From Thalassospira sp. (lineage in GTDB: Bacteria; Pseudomonadota; Alphaproteobacteria; Rhodospirillales; Thalassospiraceae), in contig NZ_JAUYHK010000019.1 of the NCBI RefSeq assembly GCF_030690045.1, positions 62,001 to 126,000 of the forward strand: 64,000 bases of DNA, read 5' to 3'. The position numbers and the translations under genes were made by a program. This document shows, in pieces, positions 882 through 41,503 of the stretch (the first letter of the stretch is position 1; each line of letters opens with the position of its first letter). The notes below the pieces were generated by a model. That model did not search any database, had not been told where the DNA came from, and saw nothing but the letters and a program-made list of their open reading frames with translations.

Positions 882-902
882 GAAGCTACCCCGAAAAAAG
901 AC

Positions 903-927
903 TGCCGGGACCCAAACGATCCCGGCA
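903..927 (-). terminator. Stem-loop between phnD and phnC
   Basis: TGCCGGGA (903-910) pairs with TCCCGGCA (920-927) around a 9-nt loop, just after the phnD stop on the minus strand. No strong U-run follows. It is more likely an mRNA-stabilising or attenuating hairpin that keeps binding protein above ATPase levels than a full terminator. Confidence 0.6.
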
Positions 928-948
928 GGATGTCATTGAAACAAAGGA

Positions 949-1971
949 TTACTTCAGGTTGTCCGGGGTGTATTTCACACCGTTGGCAGCCTGAATGTCA
1001 CGGATCACCGACCAGTTGTCCTTGTAATTGATCGGGACAAACTTCGAGACGCCCTTGAATTCCTCGCCCAGCGCAGTGCCCTTCATGTCGAAGGTAAAGA
1101 AGGCTTCCTTGATCTTTTCAACCAATGCCGGATCAAGATTGTGGGCATAGTTAAACGAGGTGGTCGGGAAACGGGCGGTTTCGTAAATGATTTTCACTTC
1201 TGCCGGATCATAAAGATCGCGCTGTGCCATCCGCTCGACAACTTCGGATGCGACCGGGGCCGCCTCGTAGTCACCGGCAACCACACCCAGCATCGACTGG
1301 TCATGCGACCCGGAATAAACGACTTCGTAATCGGTGTCGGGCACGATGCCAAGGCCCGGGAACAGGGCGCGCGGTGCCAGATTGCCGGAATTCGAGGTCG
1401 GCGAAGTATGCGCAACCCGTCTGCCTTTAAGGTCGGCCAGTTCGTTAATGCCGCTGTCAACACGGGTGTAAAGCTGCAAGGTGTAACCAAAATTGCCTTC
1501 GTCATTGCCCATCAGGGCAAACGGAACCGCACCGGCAAGATTGACGGCAAACGGGGTCGGCCCGGTCGAGAAACCGGCAACATGCAGGCGGCCTGACCGC
1601 ATGGCTTCGACTTCTGCCGAATTCGACTGCACGGCAAAGAAATGCACATCCTTGCCGGTAACTTCGGCCAGATGGTCGATAAAGGGCGACCAGATGTCGG
1701 CATAAACCGCCGGGTCTTCAACCGGGGTATAGGCAAAAACCAGCGTATCGGGATTGACCAGCTGATCTGCTGCCGGGGCATCGGCAACCAGATCACCATC
1801 TTCATCGCAATACATCATGTCCAGATCGCCGCGTGAAATGCAATCGGCCTGCGCCTGGGCAGAGGAAGGGGCAAATCCAAACATGCCAATGGCAGCCAAA
1901 AGCGTTGTGACCTTCAGACTGTTGGAAAGATTGATATGTTGGAGTCCGGATTTTTTCAGTTCTGAAAACAT
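949..1971 (-). CDS. phnD: Phosphonate/phosphite-type ABC transporter periplasmic binding protein PhnD
   Basis: The 340-residue protein begins at MFSELKKSG; an upstream in-frame ATG at 2058 is less likely because it would put 29 residues before the signal sequence. A hydrophobic stretch ends at SSAQAQA, typical of Sec export. The mature protein opens with a short acidic segment holding two Cys and a DEDGDLVAD loop, then the PhnD-family core: FAYTPVEDPAVY, then FFAVQSNSAEVEAMRSGRLH, then TSNSG. The family binds phosphonate, phosphite or phosphate for PhnCE. It is the first gene of the minus-strand operon. Confidence 0.88.
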   Translation of the reverse strand: MFSELKKSGLQHINLSNSLKVTTLLAAIGMFGFAPSSAQAQADCISRGDLDMMYCDEDGDLVADAPAADQLVNPDTLVFAYTPVEDPAVYADIWSPFIDHLAEVTGKDVHFFAVQSNSAEVEAMRSGRLHVAGFSTGPTPFAVNLAGAVPFALMGNDEGNFGYTLQLYTRVDSGINELADLKGRRVAHTSPTSNSGNLAPRALFPGLGIVPDTDYEVVYSGSHDQSMLGVVAGDYEAAPVASEVVERMAQRDLYDPAEVKIIYETARFPTTSFNYAHNLDPALVEKIKEAFFTFDMKGTALGEEFKGVSKFVPINYKDNWSVIRDIQAANGVKYTPDNLK

Positions 1972-2056
1972 GAATTCTTGACCTTTTTCCCTGTGAACGG
2001 CAGCGTGCCGCCATATTTTGTGTTGTTTTGTGGTTTTTGTTATTGCTTTAGCCAAC

Positions 2057-2062
2057 ATTATA
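2057..2062 (-). promoter_or_regulatory. Candidate -10 box of the phnDCE promoter
   Basis: On the minus strand there is a perfect TATAAT at 2062-2057, about 86 bp upstream of the phnD start. No good -35 hexamer sits at 16-18 bp; the upstream stretch holds TGTGACA and an AT run, which suggests an activator-dependent promoter. I could not fit a convincing Pho box. Confidence 0.4.
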
Positions 2063-2163
2063 GGCCGTGGAAAAGTTGGAAAAGCAACATAAAAATGTCA
2101 CAAACGGGCATCTTTTCTGCTGCTACTATACAGGAGGTTGGGGAAATTTCGGGGTGGCAGCAG

Positions 2164-2970
2164 ATGTTAAGGGCGCGAATGCGAAAAAAAGAACGTCATC
2201 AACTGATTTTGCAGGAACTGCAAATTCGACCACATGTGAGAGTAGCCACATTGGCGCAGCGATTCGATGTGGCGACCGAAACCATCCGGCGCGATCTGGA
2301 TGCGCTCAGCGCCGAAGGCCTGATCGACCGGGAATTTGGCGGCGCATCGGCCCGACCGATGGGCCATCAGCCCCCGGCAGAGGAACGCGGGCAAACCATC
2401 ATTGCCGAACGCGCCCGGATCGGGGCGGCGGCCTGTGCGATAATTTTGCCGGGCGAGGTGGTGATGGTCGATGCCGGATCAACCGTATCGCAACTGGCGC
2501 GGTTTTTACGGCCCGGTGCGCAACCCCGCACCTTCATCACCAATTGTTATTCGGTGGTGCGCAATATGGGCGATCAGGCCCGATCCGATCATGTCATTCT
2601 GTGTCCGGGCCGATATGATCCGCAGGAAAATGCCGTTTATGGCACGGACACGGTGGAATATCTCCGGCGGTTTCAGGCCAACAAGGCCTTCATCGGCGCA
2701 TCGGGCCTGTCGCGTCAGGGGCCCAGTGACGTCAACCGCGATGCGGTCTGGGTCAAACGTGCGATGATGGAACGATCCGGCGAAGTCTGGCTGATGATCG
2801 ATCATACCAAATTCGATCAGCGGTTTCTGGAAATCGTCACCCCGCTGGATGTTCTGACCGGCATCATTTCCGACCAATTGCCACCCCCTGCCTTGCTGGC
2901 GCAACTGGATCGCAGCAATGTCAGGGTGGTGGTGGCAGAAGGTCAGGATAATGGATTGGTGGCGATCTGA
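2164..2970 (+). CDS. DeoR-family transcriptional regulator
   Basis: From the ATG at 2164 (MLRARMRKKERHQLI) this is 268 residues, the usual DeoR size; the open frame extends further upstream but without family similarity. An N-terminal winged helix (VATLAQRFDVATETIRRDLD) is followed by the DeoR sensor domain with VVMVDAGSTVSQLARFL, a TNC motif, and DHTKF near the C-terminus. These sensor domains bind phosphorylated sugars or related phosphometabolites. It is divergent from phnDCE across about 190 bp, so control of that operon is the natural inference, unproven. Confidence 0.85.
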   Translation: MLRARMRKKERHQLILQELQIRPHVRVATLAQRFDVATETIRRDLDALSAEGLIDREFGGASARPMGHQPPAEERGQTIIAERARIGAAACAIILPGEVVMVDAGSTVSQLARFLRPGAQPRTFITNCYSVVRNMGDQARSDHVILCPGRYDPQENAVYGTDTVEYLRRFQANKAFIGASGLSRQGPSDVNRDAVWVKRAMMERSGEVWLMIDHTKFDQRFLEIVTPLDVLTGIISDQLPPPALLAQLDRSNVRVVVAEGQDNGLVAI

Positions 2971-2983
2971 TCACGATATGAGA

Positions 2984-3001
2984 TGTACTTGTATGTGTAC
3001 A
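2984..3001. promoter_or_regulatory. Paired YefM-type operator (TGTACT/TGTACA)
   Basis: TGTACT (2984-2989) and TGTACA (2996-3001) lie with a 12-bp centre-to-centre spacing, about 60 bp before the antitoxin start. The E. coli yefM-yoeB operator is known to use two palindromes with a TGTACA core at this spacing, bound by YefM and YefM-YoeB for conditional autorepression. One half here has a single mismatch to the core. Confidence 0.65.
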
Positions 3002-3059
3002 TTTTGGGGACTTTGTGCGATAAGAACAACAGCAAAGACCCAAAACGAGGATCGACATC

Positions 3060-3311
3060 ATGAATGTCGTCAATTTCACGGATATCCGAAAAAACCTGAA
3101 GGCCGAACTGGATCGGGTTGATCAGGACCATGACTATACTGTCATCGCACGCCGCAATGCCTCGAATGCAGTTGTTATGTCAGAAGCCTATTTCAATCAG
3201 ATCATGGAAACCATGCATCTGATCAAATCACCTGCAAATGCGACTCATCTGGAAAAATCCATTGCGCAATTGCGGGCCGGACAGGCTCAGGAACGCGATC
3301 TGATTGAATGA
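3060..3311 (+). CDS. yefM: YefM/Phd-family antitoxin
   Basis: An 83-residue antitoxin. The N-terminal DNA-binding fold is recognisable from NFTDIRKNLKAELDRVDQDH and ARRNASNAVVMSEAYFNQI, and a polar C-terminal tail should wrap the toxin. The start follows a GAGGA Shine-Dalgarno. The stop overlaps the toxin start as ATGA (3308-3311), which couples their translation. It is expected to neutralise YoeB and repress its own promoter through the paired TGTAC boxes upstream. Confidence 0.92.
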   Translation: MNVVNFTDIRKNLKAELDRVDQDHDYTVIARRNASNAVVMSEAYFNQIMETMHLIKSPANATHLEKSIAQLRAGQAQERDLIE

Positions 3312-3568
3312 AAAGACGGATCGCGTTTACCCCTGATGCCTGGGATGATTACCTGTATTGGCAGGGGCAGGATCGAAAAACGCTTAAACGTATCAATCAA
3401 CTGATTCGTGACATTCAACGCGAACCATTTGACGGAATCGGCAAACCTGAACCCCTTAAAGAAGGTCTTTCCGGTTTCTGGTCGCGCCGGATCGATGATA
3501 CCAACCGGCTGGTCTACGAGGTCAGCGAAGAACGGATATCGGTTGTTTCCTGTCGCTATCATTATTAA
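3308..3568 (+). CDS. yoeB: YoeB-family mRNA interferase toxin
   Basis: An 86-residue RelE-superfamily toxin that cleaves mRNA in the ribosomal A site. The E. coli YoeB catalytic set Glu46, Arg65, His83 and Tyr84 has equivalents at E48 (in KPEPLK), R67 (in TNRLVYE), H85 and Y86, each shifted by two, so the protein looks active. It overlaps the antitoxin gene by 4 bp. The pair sits alone between a regulator and fumC, as expected for a small mobile module. Confidence 0.93.
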   Translation: MKRRIAFTPDAWDDYLYWQGQDRKTLKRINQLIRDIQREPFDGIGKPEPLKEGLSGFWSRRIDDTNRLVYEVSEERISVVSCRYHY

Positions 3569-3689
3569 ATAGTGAGCGTCGCCGCCGAATTATTCCATTA
3601 ATCTGCTGGCGATGAACCATAAAATCCCTATATCGGGCACAGCGCCGGGTTCCCGCCCCGGTCAGTTTTTTCTGACACGGAGGAAGATT

Positions 3690-5084
3690 GTGACTGCACA
3701 GCCAAACAGCCGCACGGAACGCGATACGATGGGGGCGGTCGAGGTTCCCGCTGATCGTTATTGGGGCGCACAAACCCAACGATCCAAAGAAAATTTCCGC
3801 ATTGGCGGGGAACGCATGCCCGATGCCCTGATCCGGGCCTTTGGCATTCAGAAACTGGCCGCCGCACGGGCCAACCGGGCGCTGGGCGATCTGGATGCCC
3901 GATTGTCCGACGCCATTGAGGCCGCCGCCCGCGAAGTCGCCGATGGCAAGCTGATGGATCATTTCCCCCTGGTGGTCTGGCAAACCGGCAGCGGCACCCA
4001 GACCAACATGAATGTCAACGAAGTGATCGCCAACCGCGCCTGTGAAATTCTGGGAGCACCCATGGGCCAACGCGATCCCGTCCATCCCAATGATCATGTC
4101 AATCGCGGGCAATCCTCCAATGACAGTTTTCCGGCCGCCATGCATATCGCCGCTGTGATCGAGATTGAGGAAAAACTCAAACCGGCGCTGGCACATTTGC
4201 GATCCGCGCTGGAAATCAAAATGGCGGAATTTTCCACCATCGTCAAAATCGGCCGCACCCATATGCAGGATGCCGTACCCCTGACCTTGGGGCAGGAATT
4301 TTCCGGCTATGCCACGCAAATCGCCCTGGGTCTTGACCGGATCAATGATGCCCTGCCGCGTTTGTGCAAACTCGCACAGGGCGGAACTGCCCTTGGCACC
4401 GGTTTGAATGCGCCCAAGGGATTCGACGTGCAATTCGCCCGCGAGGTCAGCACCCTGACCGGGCTGGATTTCCAGACCGCCGAAAACAAGTTCGAGGCAC
4501 TGGCCGCCCATGATGCCTGTGTTGAAATGTCCGGCGTTCTGAATGTTCTGGCGGTGTCGCTGATGAAAATCGGCAACGATATCCGGTTACTGGGATCGGG
4601 GCCGCGCTGCGGGCTGGGCGAACTGGTATTGCCTGCCAATGAACCGGGATCATCCATCATGCCGGGCAAGGTCAACCCGACCCAGGCCGAAGCCCTGACG
4701 ATGGTCTGTGCGCAGGTGATGGGAAACAATGTGGCGGTGACGGTGGGCGGATCGAATGGTCATCTCGATTTGAACGTGTTCAAACCGGTGATCATTTATA
4801 ATCTGTTGCAATCCATCCGGTTGCTGGCCGATGCGGCGGTCAGTTTCACCGATCATTGCATCACCGGGCTCGAAGCCGACACGGCACGCATTGCACATTA
4901 TGTCGAACAAAGCCTGATGCTGGTGACGGCGTTGGCCCCGCATATCGGCTATGACAAGGCCGCCGCCGTTGCCAAAAAGGCCCATGCAGAACGATCCAGC
5001 CTGAAAGAAGCAACCCTTGCCCTGGGATATCTGGACGCGGCCCAGTTTGATGAACTGGTGCGGGCCGAAGACATGATCGGTTAA
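3690..5084 (+). CDS. fumC: Class II fumarate hydratase FumC
   Basis: Iron-independent fumarase of the TCA cycle (fumarate to L-malate). The GTG at 3690, preceded by GGAGGAAG, gives 464 residues starting [15 protein letters not shown], the normal length and N-terminus of FumC; the frame opens earlier at 3612 but the extra residues have no family match. Diagnostic pieces are the family start [41 protein letters not shown] and the fumarase/aspartase signature [13 protein letters not shown]. It appears monocistronic, with a hairpin just after it. Confidence 0.97.
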
Positions 5085-37496: not shown

Positions 37497-38858
37497 ATGT
37501 CTGAATATGATTATGATCTGTTTGTGATCGGTGCCGGGTCGGGCGGGGTGCGTGCCGCCCGTGTGGCATCGGGATATGGCGCCAAAGTGGCAATTGCCGA
37601 AGAAAGCCGGGTGGGTGGCACCTGTGTCATTCGCGGCTGTGTCCCCAAAAAGCTTCTGGTTTACGGCGCGCATTTCGCCGAGGATTTCGAGGATGCGGCC
37701 GCCTATGGCTGGACCCTGCCGGGCAAGCCGGAATTTTCATGGAAAACCCTGATTGCCAACAAGGATGCCGAGATTGAACGCCTGAACGGCATTTATAAAA
37801 AACTGCTGGCCGGGTCCAATGTCGAACTGTTTGAAAGCCGCGCAGTTCTGCAAGACGCTCATACCATCAAGGTCGGCGATAAAACCGTGACGGCGGACCG
37901 GATTTTGATTGCGGTGGGCGGCACGCCGACCCTGCCCGATATTCCGGGTATCGAACATGCGATTTCCTCGAACGAGGCCTTTCACCTTGAAGAATTGCCC
38001 GGCCGCATTGCCGTGGTTGGCGGCGGTTATATTGCGGTGGAATTCGCCGGGATTTTTGCCGGGCTGGGCGCACAGGTCACACAGTTTTATCGCGGCGATC
38101 AGATTTTGCGCGGCTTTGATCACGATATCCGCACCCATCTGGCGCAGGAAATTGTCAAAAAGGGCATTGACCTGAAACTGCACACCAATGTCACGGCGAT
38201 TGAAAAGCAGGATGACGGGACGCTTTGCCTCACCCTGACCGGCGGCGGGCATCAGGTGGTCGATGCCATCATGTTTGCCACCGGGCGCAATCCCAAAACC
38301 CACGGCATGGGCCTTGAACAGGCCGGGGTGGAACTGAAAAACAACAATGCCATCATCACCAATGCGGCACTTCAAACCAGTGTGCCCAATATTTATGCCG
38401 TGGGCGATGTCCGCGATCATGTGCAACTGACGCCGGTGGCAATCAAGGAAGGCATGGCCTTTGCCGACAGTGTCTTTGGCGGCAAACCGTGGTCGATGTC
38501 CTATCACGCCATCCCGACGGCGGTGTTCAGCCAGCCGCCGGTCGGCACCGTGGGATTAAGCGAGGAAGAAGCGCGTGCCAAAGGCGGCGAGGTGGTGATT
38601 TACAAATCCACCTTCAAACCGATGCGCCATACCCTTTCGGGGCGTGATGAAAAAACCCTGATGAAACTGATCGTCGATAAAACCACCGATGTGGTTTTGG
38701 GTGCCCACATGGTCGGCCCCGATGCCGCCGAAATCATTCAGGGCATCGGCATTGCGGTCCGCATGGGCGCAACCAAGGCACAGTTTGACCAGACGGTGGC
38801 GGTGCATCCGTCGGCGGCAGAGGAATTTGTGACGATGCGCTTCCCGGTCGGCGGCTGA
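37497..38858 (+). CDS. gor: Glutathione-disulfide reductase
   Basis: A 453-residue flavoprotein that reduces GSSG with NADPH. FAD-binding GAGSGGVRAARVA is at the N-terminus, followed by the redox disulfide CVIRGCVPKKL, the NADPH-binding GGGYIAVEFAGIF, FATGRNPKT, VGDVRDHVQLTPVA and the C-terminal dimer-interface catalytic HPSAAEEFV. Length is normal. A strong terminator follows; beyond that the composition changes at the GHKL gene. Confidence 0.96.
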   Translation: MSEYDYDLFVIGAGSGGVRAARVASGYGAKVAIAEESRVGGTCVIRGCVPKKLLVYGAHFAEDFEDAAAYGWTLPGKPEFSWKTLIANKDAEIERLNGIYKKLLAGSNVELFESRAVLQDAHTIKVGDKTVTADRILIAVGGTPTLPDIPGIEHAISSNEAFHLEELPGRIAVVGGGYIAVEFAGIFAGLGAQVTQFYRGDQILRGFDHDIRTHLAQEIVKKGIDLKLHTNVTAIEKQDDGTLCLTLTGGGHQVVDAIMFATGRNPKTHGMGLEQAGVELKNNNAIITNAALQTSVPNIYAVGDVRDHVQLTPVAIKEGMAFADSVFGGKPWSMSYHAIPTAVFSQPPVGTVGLSEEEARAKGGEVVIYKSTFKPMRHTLSGRDEKTLMKLIVDKTTDVVLGAHMVGPDAAEIIQGIGIAVRMGATKAQFDQTVAVHPSAAEEFVTMRFPVGG

Positions 38859-38871
38859 TCTTAAAAGCTAA

Positions 38872-38906
38872 AGCCTTCTGATATGCAATAGGTATATCAG
38901 AAGGCT
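38872..38906 (+). terminator. Terminator after gor
   Basis: AGCCTTCTGATAT (38872-38884) pairs perfectly with ATATCAGAAGGCT (38894-38906) over a 9-nt loop, followed by GCGTTTTTG. Confidence 0.9.
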
Positions 38907-38995: not shown

Positions 38996-40927
38996 ATGCA
39001 GCAAACTGAATTGTTTTATGATGAGCGCTTTCTTGAAAGTTGGGCTGGCTCAATCGTATCTGTTCCGAGTACCGCTTTGGTTGAATTGGTTGCCAACTGT
39101 TGGGATGCTTATGCGACAAAAGTGGATATCACGTGCGCTGATTTTTCCGAGCAAACTCAATTCTCAATTGTAGATAACGGCAAAGGGATGACGCTAGACG
39201 AGTTCCAGTTTATTTGGAAGACGATGTCTTACAACCGTTTGAATTATGGCGGAGAATCTGTACTACCCCCGAATGACATCAAGGGAAATCCACGTCCAGT
39301 CTTTGGTCGAAACGGCAAAGGACGCTTCGCTGCATTCTGTTTTTCAGATTCATATGTTGTTAAATCCCGAAGCAATGGGGAAGAGTTTGAGTGCAAGGTT
39401 TATCGCACGTCAAGTAGACCGCTAGTCATCGAAGAGATAAGCTACACGGCGACCGGCGTTGAGGGGCACGGTACAGAGATTCGAGGCGTTGGTTCGATTA
39501 CTCAACTTAAGTTCTCAGAAGACGAGGCGCGAGAGGTTATCGGAGGACGATTTCTAGCTAACCCTGGTTTTGAAGTGTTTGTAAATAAAAGGAAAGTTAC
39601 CTTTTCAGATTTACCAGATAGTGCTCTGCGCACTGAGATGGTTGATGTGCCTGGATATGGGGCTCTTAAGATTATCCATATCGATTCTAGGCAGGCGGAT
39701 AAAACAACCAAACAGCACGGTATTGCATGGTGGGTGGCTGGTCGAGCCGTTGGTGAATGTAGGTGGAGTGGCAGTGACCTTGAGAGAGTTCTTGATGGCA
39801 GGACGAACGAAGCCAAGAGATTCACATTTATTGTCCAAGCCGATTTTCTAAAAGATAATTCGGCTGTCGAGGCCGATTGGTCCTCTTTTATCGAGGATAA
39901 CCAAGCTTGGCAGGCAGCTAGAGCTATTGCCCAGAACAAGATCAAAGAAATAATTGATGGCGTAAATCTATCAGAGCGAGATGTAAGAAAACGCTCAGTT
40001 ATTAAGAAGATTGGTAGTGGCATCGACCGATTGCCCCCACTCAGTAAAGATCGCGTTTCCAATTTTGTTGATCAAGTAGTAGATCAGTGTCCGAGCTTAC
40101 GTGAAAGCGATATCGTTCATTTGAGTTCTATTCTCGCCAATCTTGAGAAAAGTAGTTCGCAATTTGGTTTGCTTGAGCTTCTTCATGATCAAGCTCCGCA
40201 TGATTTAGATGCCTTGCACGATATTTTAACTAAGTGGTCAATTGGCATGGCTAAAATTGTGTTAGATGAAATACAGACTCGCCTAAAGATTGTGCATGAA
40301 CTTAAAGAAAAAGTTCAAATTGATCGTGTCGATGAGGTTCACGAATTACAGCCTTTGTTTGAAAAGGGGTTGTGGATGTTCGGACCCCAATTTGAGTCTA
40401 TTGAGTTCACATCTAACAAAGGCATGACAACTGTTATTCGTGAATTATTCAAAGACTCAGAATTAAAAGGTACTCGTAATCGTCCAGATTTCGTAATTCT
40501 TCCAGATACGAGCATCGGATTTTATGCTCGGAACTCATATGATGAGGAGTTTAACGAGAATGGGATTGATCACTTGGTTGTTGTTGATTTGAAAACAACT
40601 AAGTTGCCTCTTGGGAGTGTGGAGAAAGAGCAAGTATGGAAATACATAAAAGAGCTTAAATCCAAAGGGAAGATCCAAGCTCATACTAGGGTGGATGGCT
40701 TCGTTCTCGGCACGGAAATAGAGCCTGGAGAAGGCGATCATACGACGCACGGTAGCAACGTCCGGGTTATACCTATGTTATACGACACTGTTCTGGCGAG
40801 AGCGGAAACAAGACTACTAAACCTTTATGATCAAGTGAAAGAAGCTCCGTTCCTGCGTGAGCACAAGGACGATCTAGCACAATTTGTCCAAGCTTCTTCT
40901 TCTGACCAAGGTAGTTTAGCTGTTTAG
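38996..40927 (+). CDS. GHKL ATPase fused to DUF4263/Shedu-like PD-(D/E)XK domain, putative defence protein
   Basis: A 643-residue cytosolic protein. An HSP90/MutL/MORC-type GHKL ATPase occupies about 15-330: N-box ELVANCWDAY (30-39), DNGKGM (60-65), GRNGKGRFAAF (104-114) and HGTEIRG (158-164). A helical linker follows (about 340-445). The C-terminus starts with LQPLFEKGLWMFGPQFE (451-467), like DUF4263, and has a nuclease-like core: Asp498 (RPDFVIL), D531-L-K533 and Q546 (EQVWKY). It is A/T-rich, stands alone after the gor terminator, and suits an ATP-gated defence nuclease. Function is inferred. Confidence 0.75.
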   Translation: MQQTELFYDERFLESWAGSIVSVPSTALVELVANCWDAYATKVDITCADFSEQTQFSIVDNGKGMTLDEFQFIWKTMSYNRLNYGGESVLPPNDIKGNPRPVFGRNGKGRFAAFCFSDSYVVKSRSNGEEFECKVYRTSSRPLVIEEISYTATGVEGHGTEIRGVGSITQLKFSEDEAREVIGGRFLANPGFEVFVNKRKVTFSDLPDSALRTEMVDVPGYGALKIIHIDSRQADKTTKQHGIAWWVAGRAVGECRWSGSDLERVLDGRTNEAKRFTFIVQADFLKDNSAVEADWSSFIEDNQAWQAARAIAQNKIKEIIDGVNLSERDVRKRSVIKKIGSGIDRLPPLSKDRVSNFVDQVVDQCPSLRESDIVHLSSILANLEKSSSQFGLLELLHDQAPHDLDALHDILTKWSIGMAKIVLDEIQTRLKIVHELKEKVQIDRVDEVHELQPLFEKGLWMFGPQFESIEFTSNKGMTTVIRELFKDSELKGTRNRPDFVILPDTSIGFYARNSYDEEFNENGIDHLVVVDLKTTKLPLGSVEKEQVWKYIKELKSKGKIQAHTRVDGFVLGTEIEPGEGDHTTHGSNVRVIPMLYDTVLARAETRLLNLYDQVKEAPFLREHKDDLAQFVQASSSDQGSLAV

Positions 40928-41038: not shown

Positions 41039-41503
41039 TCAGAATGGCAGCGGCGCATTATCCACCACCTCTTTCATGACAAAAAACGTCCGCGTTTGCC
41101 GCACGCCGGGCAGGGCAATCAGTTGTTCGCCGTGCAGATGGTTGAAATCCGCCATGTCGCGCACCCGGATTTTCAGGAAATAGTCAAAATCCCCGGCCAC
41201 CAGATGGCAATCAAGGATAAAGGGCAGTTTGCGGCACGCGGTTTCAAATTCGGCAAAGCTGTCAGGCGTGGACCGGTCCAACACCACACCGACCATCACC
41301 AGCGCCCCGCGATCCACCTTGTCGGGTGCGATGTGGGCGCGGACCGATGTGACATAGCCATCGTCAAACAATCGTTGCATCCGGCGGTGGCAGGTTGCCG
41401 GGCTGACATTGACCCGTTTGGCAATCTCGGCATTGCCCATGCGACCATCGCTTTGCAACAGGCGCAAAATCTTTTGATCGATGCGGTCGATAGTATCGGG
41501 CAT
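41039..41503 (-). CDS. acdR: Lrp/AsnC-family regulator AcdR
   Basis: A 154-residue regulator. The N-terminal helix-turn-helix (GNAEIAKRVNVSPATCHRRM) is followed by the Lrp effector/oligomer domain (CHLVAGDFDYFLKIRVRDM). It is divergent from the ACC deaminase gene over a 167-bp AT-rich spacer, the arrangement known in Pseudomonas and Azospirillum, where AcdR activates acdS in response to ACC. The gene symbol rests on this context. Confidence 0.85.
   Translation of the reverse strand: MPDTIDRIDQKILRLLQSDGRMGNAEIAKRVNVSPATCHRRMQRLFDDGYVTSVRAHIAPDKVDRGALVMVGVVLDRSTPDSFAEFETACRKLPFILDCHLVAGDFDYFLKIRVRDMADFNHLHGEQLIALPGVRQTRTFFVMKEVVDNAPLPF

What the first reader, a model, noticed from the sequence alone, without database searches (positions are those of the whole stretch)
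38996..40927. GHKL ATPase fused to a Shedu/DUF4263-like nuclease domain in a lone AT-rich gene
Seen: a complete GHKL ATP site (N-box, DNGKGM, GRNGKG, HGTE) in the N-terminal half, and a C-terminal half with LQPLFEKGLWMFG, an Asp498/D531-L-K533 core and Q546. The gene is A/T-rich and sits alone between the gor terminator and acdR. Known: prokaryotic MORC-like GHKL proteins occur in restriction and defence loci, and Shedu (DUF4263) is an anti-phage nuclease family with variable N-terminal domains. Inference: a single-gene defence system in which ATP-driven clamp closure controls a nuclease. I do not know this exact fusion as a named system.
Basis: partly seen in the sequence, partly recalled or inferred. 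Interest (0 to 1): 0.75.

Follow-up and report, generated by a model that had tools for sequence, protein, structure and literature searches.

The report
ATP-gated Shedu-like defence nuclease gene
A lone, horizontally gained bacterial gene encodes one protein that joins an ATP-driven clamp to a DNA-cutting domain, very probably a virus- or plasmid-defence enzyme of a design first tested in the cholera bacterium in 2025, but from a separate branch that the Shedu models used here do not recognise.

Summary
Window 38996-40927 (+) encodes a 643-aa protein with a complete GHKL ATP site and a C-terminal PD-(D/E)xK nuclease domain. Pfam's Shedu model (PF14082) misses that domain; profile-profile comparison finds it (Shedu SduA_C E 1.4e-7, GHKL-Shedu fusions E 8.7e-14; shuffled, Mrr and RecB controls fail). 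The top structural match is the Shedu nuclease (Z 9.2, tied with Nt.BspD6I). Catalytic E447, D498, D/E531, K533, Q546 are kept in 35 of 35 family members. The gene is accessory: 2 of 29 congeneric genomes have it, in a variable slot after gor that in others holds an NgoMIV-type restriction-modification system with HipBA, AIPR, or non-defence genes. Some homologues sit beside DRT, DISARM-type, type IIG or UvrD-helicase defence genes, on plasmids and in viral contigs. The architecture is published: paraMORC3 (2008) and VcSduA (2025, anti-phage, needing ATPase and nuclease). This family is a separate clade (100/99) and, unlike sister BbrUII/HgiDII-type restriction enzymes, has no linked C5 methyltransferase (0 of 36 loci). 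Best reading: single-gene defence nuclease gated by an ATP clamp, not guarded by C5 methylation. Trigger and specificity are unknown; nothing was tested at the bench.

The parts
38996..40927 (+). Whole gene: 643-aa GHKL ATPase - PD-(D/E)xK nuclease fusion (P0001)
   Evidence: 25-sequence alignment
39068..39388 (+). GHKL (Bergerat-fold) ATPase domain, residues 25-131 (Pfam HATPase_c_3)
   Evidence: E 9.4e-14; Hsp90/TRAP1/MORC rows for the full model
39083..39106 (+). Motif I / N-box, residues 30-37 (E30 general base by analogy, N34, D37)
   Evidence: E30, N34 and D37 each 35 of 35
39173..39190 (+). Motif II DNGKGM, residues 60-65
   Evidence: D60, G62, G64 each 35 of 35
39305..39322 (+). Motif III GRNGKG (ATP lid), residues 104-109
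   Evidence: G104, G107, G109 35 of 35; N106 34 of 35
39467..39478 (+). Motif IV HGTE, residues 158-161
   Evidence: G159 35 of 35, H158 30 of 35, T160 33 of 35
39518..39895 (+). S5/transducer-like middle domain, residues about 175-300, with conserved K274
   Evidence: Alpha/beta elements in the model; K274 34 of 35; the name S5 is by analogy with MutL/MORC, not tested
39902..40315 (+). Helical connector, residues about 303-440
   Evidence: Helices 303-344, 348-364, 370-387, 391-397, 404-440 in the model
40316..40861 (+). C-terminal PD-(D/E)xK nuclease domain, residues about 441-622, Shedu-like
   Evidence: VIA-align Z 9.2 to Shedu 8ti9; hhalign E 1.4e-7 to SduA_C, E 8.7e-14 to GHKL-Shedu fusions
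40334..40336 (+). E447, first acidic residue of the nuclease motif
   Evidence: 35 of 35
40487..40489 (+). D498, metal-binding Asp (by analogy)
   Evidence: 35 of 35; pairs with the Shedu Asp in the profile alignment
40586..40594 (+). D531-L532-K533, the (D/E)xK core
   Evidence: 531 is D in 20 and E in 15; K533 35 of 35
40631..40633 (+). Q546, helix Gln after the (D/E)xK core
   Evidence: 35 of 35
38872..38906 (+). Intrinsic terminator-like stem-loop of gor; left boundary of the inserted stretch
   Evidence: 15 pairs, then T-run
37497..38858 (+). gor-like glutathione reductase, left flank, matched in 29 of 29 congeneric genomes
   Evidence: Pfam Pyr_redox_2 and Pyr_redox_dim
41039..41503 (-).
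   Evidence: Pfam AsnC_trans_reg

Best explanation
The gene is a horizontally acquired, single-gene immunity enzyme against foreign DNA. The N-terminal GHKL and transducer-like domains form an ATP-dependent dimeric clamp. When the clamp meets DNA in a state typical of an invader (free ends, unusual topology or replication intermediates; which one is unknown), ATP-driven closure licenses the C-terminal Shedu-like PD-(D/E)xK domains to cut that DNA. It has no linked C5 methyltransferase, so it probably discriminates by DNA state or by a phage product rather than by protected sites. Shown here: domain anatomy, conserved catalytic sites, relation to Shedu and to GHKL-Shedu fusions, accessory distribution, defence genes near part of the homologues, absence of linked C5 methyltransferases. 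Shown by others for the related VcSduA: anti-phage activity that needs both the ATPase Glu and the nuclease Lys. Inferred: dimerisation, ATP gating, trigger, substrate, independence of methylation.
For: ATP site intact. Nuclease fold: (Shedu 8ti9_A Z 9.2, rmsd 3.2, 150 aligned; Nt.BspD6I 8.9; E. coli SduA 8.5; FokI 8.1). Homology: SduA_C score 52.6, best of 40 column shuffles 20.8; fusion profile score 93.6, best shuffle 17.5; Mrr E 0.38, RecB-type E 0.053. Active site in 35 of 35. Accessory: 2 of 29 congeneric genomes; 3 full-length of 397 in the phylum sample, own genome included. Slot exchange: NgoMIV-type RE + C5 MTase + HipBA in one sister species, AIPR in another. Defence neighbours in at least 7 of 28 loci: Drt1a, IIG, DISARM-type DrmMI/DrmD, NERD+UvrD, a partial PifA match; on annotated plasmids AbiEii, an ATP-binding/UvrD-helicase pair, MmeI + cas9 + cas1, a Shedu protein. 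Background: 43 window ORFs match 6 PADLOC families, 103 neighbours match 137, though one protein can match a dozen or more related models. No C5 MTase in the DNA held for 36 of 36 homologue loci and none found in this genome. Purifying selection against the G020 copy, pN 0.149 against pS 0.81. Function of the same architecture: PMC12137116, passages.
Against: No phage or plasmid assay exists for this clade as far as my searches show. PF14082, PADLOC and NCBIfam do not recognise the C-terminal domain. The nuclease model is only moderate (pLDDT 67; residues around D498 under 50), and Foldseek alone gives no hit at or under E 0.001. In this genome the flanks are housekeeping genes, not a defence island. 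The slot after gor also holds cargo with no sign of defence in several sister species. I had no VcSduA sequence to compare with. Of 20 long neighbours scanned one by one, 13 matched no PADLOC family at 1e-30. Type IIG enzymes, which carry their own methyltransferase, lie within 4 kb in 5 of 35 loci.
Confidence: 0.75

Rival explanations
1. It is the restriction half of a type II restriction-modification system, like BbrUII/HgiDII: it cuts a fixed sequence and the host is protected by a methyltransferase, here unlinked.
For: The NCBIfam BbrUII/HgiDII model matches its GHKL part at 78.9 bits, and PADLOC's REase_II models match the GHKL part weakly (31.6 bits, residues 14-130). L134, a clear member of that enzyme family, has the same GHKL plus PD-(D/E)xK layout, and its relatives usually have an adjacent C5 methyltransferase (4 of 5 plasmid loci fetched). 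M.HgiDII recognises GTCGAC (PMC5867850, passages). The genome holds one clear N6/N4 MTase and a low-scoring N6_Mtase match (22.7 bits, cut-off 20.4).
Against: 78.9 bits against a cut-off of 550. No C5 MTase ORF in the DNA held for 36 of 36 homologue loci, and none found in this genome, which is held as a 97% complete draft (PF00145). The family is a separate clade.
Confidence: 0.1
2. It is a DNA-repair or recombination factor of the host (a MutL-like enzyme with its own nuclease).
For: MutL models match the N-box region weakly (TIGR00585, 33.9 bits). GHKL plus nuclease is also the layout of many MutL proteins (PMC2292703, section 6 passage).
Against: TIGR00585 cut-off is 180 bits. Only 2 of 29 congeneric genomes have the gene, and a separate 635-aa frame with a MutL-like N-box match is present in this genome (MutL is my inference). 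The nuclease is of the PD-(D/E)xK type.
Confidence: 0.04
3. It is mainly an anti-plasmid or anti-conjugation nuclease, or a competition device of mobile elements, rather than an anti-phage system.
For: Homologues sit on 8 plasmid records at 45-49% identity, beside a recombinase or a transposase; in viral contigs beside integrases (L079, L080) and, for a divergent one, after phage head and tail genes (L081).
Against: Part of the chromosomal copies lie among anti-phage genes. The closest tested architecture acts on phages (PMC12137116).
Confidence: 0.1

Closest known systems
VcSduA (V. cholerae Shedu, type I-D; PMC12137116, passages seen)
   Same: Single gene; N-terminal GHKL ATPase with motifs I-IV; C-terminal PD-(D/E)xK (DUF4263) nuclease; catalytic Glu and Lys in the same order (27 and 557 there, 30 and 533 here).
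   Different: I had no sequence of it, so identity is unknown. VcSduA is assigned to DUF4263 by its authors; the window protein does not reach PF14082. No activity data here.
paraMORC3 family (Iyer, Abhiman and Aravind 2008, PMC2292703, section 5 read, other passages seen)
   Same: GHKL plus S5 plus C-terminal RE-fold nuclease with E-D-ExK; sporadic in proteobacteria; a subset is stand-alone.
   Different: Their member list was not compared. Position 531 is Asp in 20 of 35 members here, Glu in 15.
BbrUII/HgiDII family restriction enzymes (NCBIfam NF050001)
   Same: Same domain order and the same kind of nuclease domain; L134, a clear member (797 bits), also matches PF14082 at 24.5 bits (below its cut-off of 27).
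   Different: Adjacent C5 methyltransferase in 4 of 5 related plasmid loci fetched; separate clade; P0001 scores 78.9 bits against a cut-off of 550.
Shedu SduA (B. cereus 8ti8/8ti9, E. coli 8ps4/8ps5)
   Same: Homologous nuclease domain by profile and fold; D, (D/E)xK and Q align.
   Different: N-terminal parts differ (no GHKL ATPase, recalled); the window family has about 18 extra residues (roughly 507-524) between the two catalytic strands.
MORC, MutL and Hsp90 GHKL ATPases
   Same: ATP-binding fold and following alpha/beta domain.
   Different: Low identity (11-15% in the Foldseek rows); no PD-(D/E)xK nuclease in the same chain in MORC and Hsp90 (recalled).

Membership tests
Shedu / DUF4263 (PF14082) | Match to the SduA_C sequence model | tested here: not met
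   No PF14082 hit at E up to 1; PF14082 search of the own genome finds none
Shedu / DUF4263 (PF14082) | PD-(D/E)xK nuclease fold of the Shedu type | tested here: met
   Shedu 8ti9_A top at Z 9.2, tied within 1 with Nt.BspD6I 8.9 and E. coli SduA 8.5; model only moderate
Shedu / DUF4263 (PF14082) | Homology of the nuclease domain to SduA_C sequences | tested here: met
   hhalign E 1.4e-7, 160 columns, against 25 SduA_C sequences; best of 40 shuffles scores 20.8 against 52.6; Mrr and RecB-type controls negative
Shedu / DUF4263 (PF14082) | Anti-phage activity that depends on the nuclease | not testable with these tools
   Needs an experiment
GHKL-Shedu fusion (VcSduA, type I-D) | N-terminal GHKL ATPase with motifs I-IV | tested here: met
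GHKL-Shedu fusion (VcSduA, type I-D) | C-terminal nuclease homologous to fusion proteins of which several match PF14082 | tested here: met
   hhalign E 8.7e-14, probability 98.1 against six fusion C-termini (L064, L065, L037, L116, L117, L134); four of the six have PF14082 matches of 21.6-28.2 bits (L116 and L117 not scanned); co-linear alignment
GHKL-Shedu fusion (VcSduA, type I-D) | Sequence relation to VcSduA itself | not tested
   No VcSduA sequence at hand
paraMORC3 | GHKL plus S5 plus C-terminal RE-fold nuclease with E-D-ExK | tested here: met
   the ExK Glu is Asp in 20 of 35 members; S5 judged from the order of elements only
paraMORC3 | Groups with the published paraMORC3 members | not tested
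   Published member list not held
BbrUII/HgiDII restriction enzymes (NF050001) | Model score over the cut-off of 550 bits | tested here: not met
   78.9 bits, best stretch residues 26-205
BbrUII/HgiDII restriction enzymes (NF050001) | Linked C5 methyltransferase | tested here: not met
   0 of 36 homologue loci and 0 in about 10 kb on either side of the gene in the window; 0 in the own genome
MutL | TIGR00585 over the cut-off of 180 bits | tested here: not met
   33.9 bits

The most novel reading that the evidence does not exclude
GHKL-Shedu enzymes form one superfamily that runs from methylation-guarded site-specific restriction enzymes (BbrUII/HgiDII) to methyltransferase-free immune nucleases. 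The clade found here is an uncharacterised branch of the second kind, in which the ATP clamp itself tells self from non-self by reading a state of the DNA (ends, topology, crossings) instead of a methyl mark.
Probability: 0.35. Interest if true: 0.65.

Novelty: new member of a known kind. Interest (0 to 1): 0.42.

Why it matters
The clade is missed by Pfam's Shedu model and by NCBIfam; PADLOC gives only a weak type II restriction-enzyme match to its ATPase part; annotated plasmid copies are called 'ATP-binding protein'. Defence surveys that rely on such models would probably miss it. It extends a design with one tested example that I know of to a second, distinct branch found in alpha-, beta- and gammaproteobacteria, on plasmids and in viral contigs. 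It also puts a restriction-enzyme family (BbrUII/HgiDII) beside Shedu on one tree, which makes a concrete question testable: how the same kind of ATP-clamp nuclease spares the host genome with and without a methyltransferase.

Tried and rejected
Sequence search of the PDB with the whole protein gave only weak GHKL hits (best E 0.038), and with the C-terminal profile only one chance hit at E 0.55. Foldseek with the full-length model (pLDDT 74, pTM 0.51) showed only Hsp90, TRAP1, GRP94 and MORC rows among the 50 listed of 1192, so the C-terminal domain was predicted alone; Foldseek then gave nothing at or under E 0.001 and the VIA second look was used. tblastn against phage records gave no match, yet PHROGs holds a family of unknown function (phrog_6203, E 6e-33, residues 19-626) and IMG/VR holds homologues.

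MutL-like repair was rejected on score and distribution. A type II restriction enzyme with a linked C5 methyltransferase was rejected; other kinds of methyltransferase were looked for only in the own genome and through. A conserved partner gene was sought among 35 loci within 4 kb: the most frequent family, type IIG/MmeI/DrmMI-type enzymes, recurs in 5. A gene of about 249 aa lies 15-27 bases downstream in three loci; it was not identified.

The attempt to place VcSduA by residue spacing (Glu to Lys 530 there; 503 here, 477 in L065, 506 in L119, 517 in L134, 575 in L118) was inconclusive.

The tree has long branches. The single-clade result for the window family (100/99) is used; the order of the other groups (support 84/54) is not. 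Of its F3 group only L134 passes the NF050001 cut-off; L004 (269 bits) and L118 (187.5) fall below it and L186-L190 were not scanned. Rows left out of the tree: partial loci L024, L030, L036, the frame-split L003, and L112 and L114. PF14082 does not match L004, L118, L119 or L081 at E 0.01. In the Shedu profile, L048 (stop), L051 (edge) and three N-terminally partial sequences (L059, L062, L063) were left out, and of the loci seven (L126, L128-L131, L133, L137) were not taken up. The methyltransferase profile was trained on seven sequences, six of them from the sister-group loci, so its 6 of 8 there is not independent; the 0 of 36 is the informative number, and some of those loci are short (L030 6.1 kb, L036 9.9 kb). 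The 103 neighbours are the two nearest ORFs per side, at most 1400 aa, of the 152 listed; the counts 137 and 6 are of models, not of genes, and only 25 of the 137 are shown. The 20 scanned singly were chosen for length, and one of them (L026:4270-6921) is not among the 103. The ORFs are mechanical, not gene calls.
Full report
WHAT IS THERE. The ORF at 38996-40927 (+) encodes 643 residues. The C-terminal half has no credible Pfam match (one chance-level hit, E 0.15) and no NCBIfam match. The gene has 43.7% GC and 39.5% GC3, against 57.4% and 66.2% in gor. It lies between the terminator-like stem-loop of gor (38872-38906) and a convergent AsnC/Lrp gene.

RELATIVES. Twenty-six loci in one-per-species genomes encode relatives at 44-61% identity, 23 of them over nearly the whole length. 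Eight plasmid records hold near-full-length relatives at 45-49%, three of them near copies of one another. Viral contigs hold four, two at 46% and two at 33-35%, plus one short match. Among 29 genomes of the genus only this one and G020 (77% identity, same site) carry the gene. In a phylum sample full-length members occur in 3 of 397 genomes, this genome included; a fourth match covers the ATPase part only. In 35 aligned members the ATP-site residues E30, N34, D60, G62, G64, G104, G107 and G109 and the nuclease residues E447, D498, K533 and Q546 are invariant; position 531 is Asp in 20 and Glu in 15. Against the G020 copy pN is 0.149 and pS 0.81 (saturated), so the protein is under purifying selection.

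THE NUCLEASE DOMAIN. Residues 408-643 were modelled alone from 30 sequences (pLDDT 67, pTM 0.64; the stretch around D498 is poor). In the VIA-align second look the top row is the Shedu nuclease domain of B. cereus (8ti9_A, Z 9.2, rmsd 3.2, 150 aligned), tied with Nt.BspD6I (8.9) and E. coli SduA (8.5), then FokI (8.1). All of these are PD-(D/E)xK nucleases (recalled). Foldseek alone was weak (best E 3.7e-3, BspD6I small subunit; Shedu 8ti8_D at rank 12, E 0.081). Independent of structure, the profile of the domain aligns over 160 columns with 25 SduA_C sequences collected with PF14082 (E 1.4e-7, probability 94) and over 164 columns with the C-termini of six GHKL fusion proteins (five of group F2 and L134 of group F3), four of which have PF14082 matches of 21.6-28.2 bits around the cut-off of 27 (E 8.7e-14, probability 98). 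D498, D531/K533 and Q546 fall on the Shedu Asp, Glu-x-Lys and Gln in that alignment. Forty column shuffles reach scores of at most 20.8 and 17.5, against 52.6 and 93.6. Profiles of Mrr (18 sequences) and RecB-type nucleases (19) give E 0.38 and 0.053. So the domain is a distant but specific relative of Shedu that PF14082 itself misses.

LOCATION AND NEIGHBOURS. Downstream of gor lies a variable slot. Of the 28 other genomes of the genus, 18 have acdR after gor: in eight the two are 81-152 bases apart (G001, G016, G017, G019, G022, G023, G027, G028), in G020 the homologue lies between, and in nine there is other cargo of 0.9-8.9 kb. G024 carries an NgoMIV-type restriction enzyme with a C5 methyltransferase and HipBA. 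Other cargos show no sign of defence: a 1690-1697-aa protein with a penicillin-binding-type protein in G007, G010 and G025 (judged by eye), and proteins without a Pfam match in G011, G018 and G026. In the remaining ten genomes acdR was not found in the 13-14 kb fetched after gor; there G009 carries an AIPR protein right after gor, and the other nine carry various genes, of which one protein (G003) was scanned, without a match. Elsewhere, homologues have as neighbours a Drt1a reverse transcriptase (L011), type IIG enzymes (L017, L021, L026), DISARM-type DrmMI and DrmD (L024), a NERD+UvrD protein (L015) and a partial PifA match (L022): at least 7 of 28 loci, a lower bound since not every neighbour was scanned singly. 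On five annotated plasmids there are AbiEii (L039, L040), an ATP-binding/UvrD-helicase pair (L040), MmeI with cas9 and cas1 (L041), a Shedu protein (L042) and a HepT-like protein (L043). PADLOC at 1e-10 finds 137 models matched among 103 neighbours against 6 among 43 ORFs of this window; one protein may match a dozen or more related models. Thirteen of 20 long neighbours scanned singly gave no match at 1e-30. No neighbour family is shared by more than 5 of 35 loci, so the gene seems to work alone or with host factors.

COMPARISON WITH KNOWN SYSTEMS. Iyer and colleagues described paraMORC3: GHKL plus S5 plus a C-terminal RE-fold nuclease, partly stand-alone (PMC2292703, section 5 read, passages). 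VcSduA of V. cholerae has a GHKL N-terminus and a DUF4263 nuclease, protects against Drexlerviridae and vibriophage X29, and loses activity with E27A or K557A; its authors hypothesise that the ATPase controls the nuclease (PMC12137116, passages; also PMC12409362, passages). EcSduA binds DNA ends (review PMC12904381, passages). The papers of Gu and of Loeff were not read (the look-up of Gu failed) and are known here only through these citations. A clear member of the NCBIfam BbrUII/HgiDII restriction-enzyme family (L134, 797 bits) also matches PF14082 (24.5 bits, below the cut-off of 27), so that enzyme family seems to have the same layout. On a tree of 49 proteins the window family (35 rows) is one clade (100/99), apart from the fusion group F2 (5 rows), the restriction-enzyme-like group F3 (8 rows) and L119. 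Four of five F3 plasmid loci fetched have an adjacent C5 methyltransferase; none of 36 window-family loci has one in the DNA held, and none was found in this genome. It has one clear N6/N4 methyltransferase and a low-scoring N6_Mtase match.

CONCLUSION. Since a defining sequence model (PF14082) was tested and not met, it is not filed as a Shedu member; it is related to the GHKL-Shedu fusions and very probably works like them. The kind is known since 2008 by sequence and 2025 by function. New here, as far as my searches reach, are the clade, its invisibility to the models used, its lack of a linked C5 methyltransferase and its link with BbrUII/HgiDII enzymes. My searches for DUF4263 with GHKL, paraMORC, Shedu type I-D with GHKL, BbrUII or HgiDII, VcSduA and GHKL with restriction endonuclease or BbrUII listed no paper whose title or abstract start joins BbrUII/HgiDII to Shedu; only open-licence papers are searched.

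Noticed in passing
L084 (G024 gor-acdR interval), 893-4809: The same chromosomal slot in a sister species carries an NgoMIV-type restriction enzyme, a C5 methyltransferase and HipBA; the gor-downstream slot looks like an exchange site that can hold defence cargo.
   Followed up: partly
L107 10258-11928 (-) (G009, downstream of gor): AIPR (abortive infection phage resistance) family protein next to gor in another sister species.
   Followed up: partly
L134 1195-3171 (-): A full-scoring BbrUII/HgiDII family restriction enzyme also matches the Shedu SduA_C model (24.5 bits, cut-off 27), which suggests that this known restriction-enzyme family uses a Shedu-type nuclease under a GHKL ATPase.
   Followed up: partly
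L004 1471-3318: A BbrUII-like GHKL protein beside a C5 methyltransferase reads LEFMRPG where the other members have ExK; the catalytic Lys is missing at the usual place.
   Followed up: no
L081 479-10085: A divergent homologue (35%) lies after head, neck and tail tape-measure genes of a phage or prophage contig.
   Followed up: partly
window:38996-40927: The protein matches PHROG family 6203 (unknown function) over residues 19-626 at 6e-33.
   Followed up: no
L018 11953-12699, L020 11944-12687, L022 11917-12663: A related gene of about 249 aa lies 15-27 bases downstream of the homologue in three loci; a possible operon partner in a subset.
   Followed up: no
L003 (G032:C64): A 48% homologue is split over two frames (residues 7-87 and 91-627): a decayed copy or a sequencing error.
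   Followed up: no
window:40987-41013: 27-base near-perfect palindrome around AAAAGGGGACTGTCCCCTTTT between the gene and acdR; it matches its own reverse strand.
   Followed up: no
window:28963-31944: 993-aa ORF in a stretch of 48-52% GC, lower than its surroundings; Ppl (partial) and mad3 PADLOC matches.
   Followed up: no
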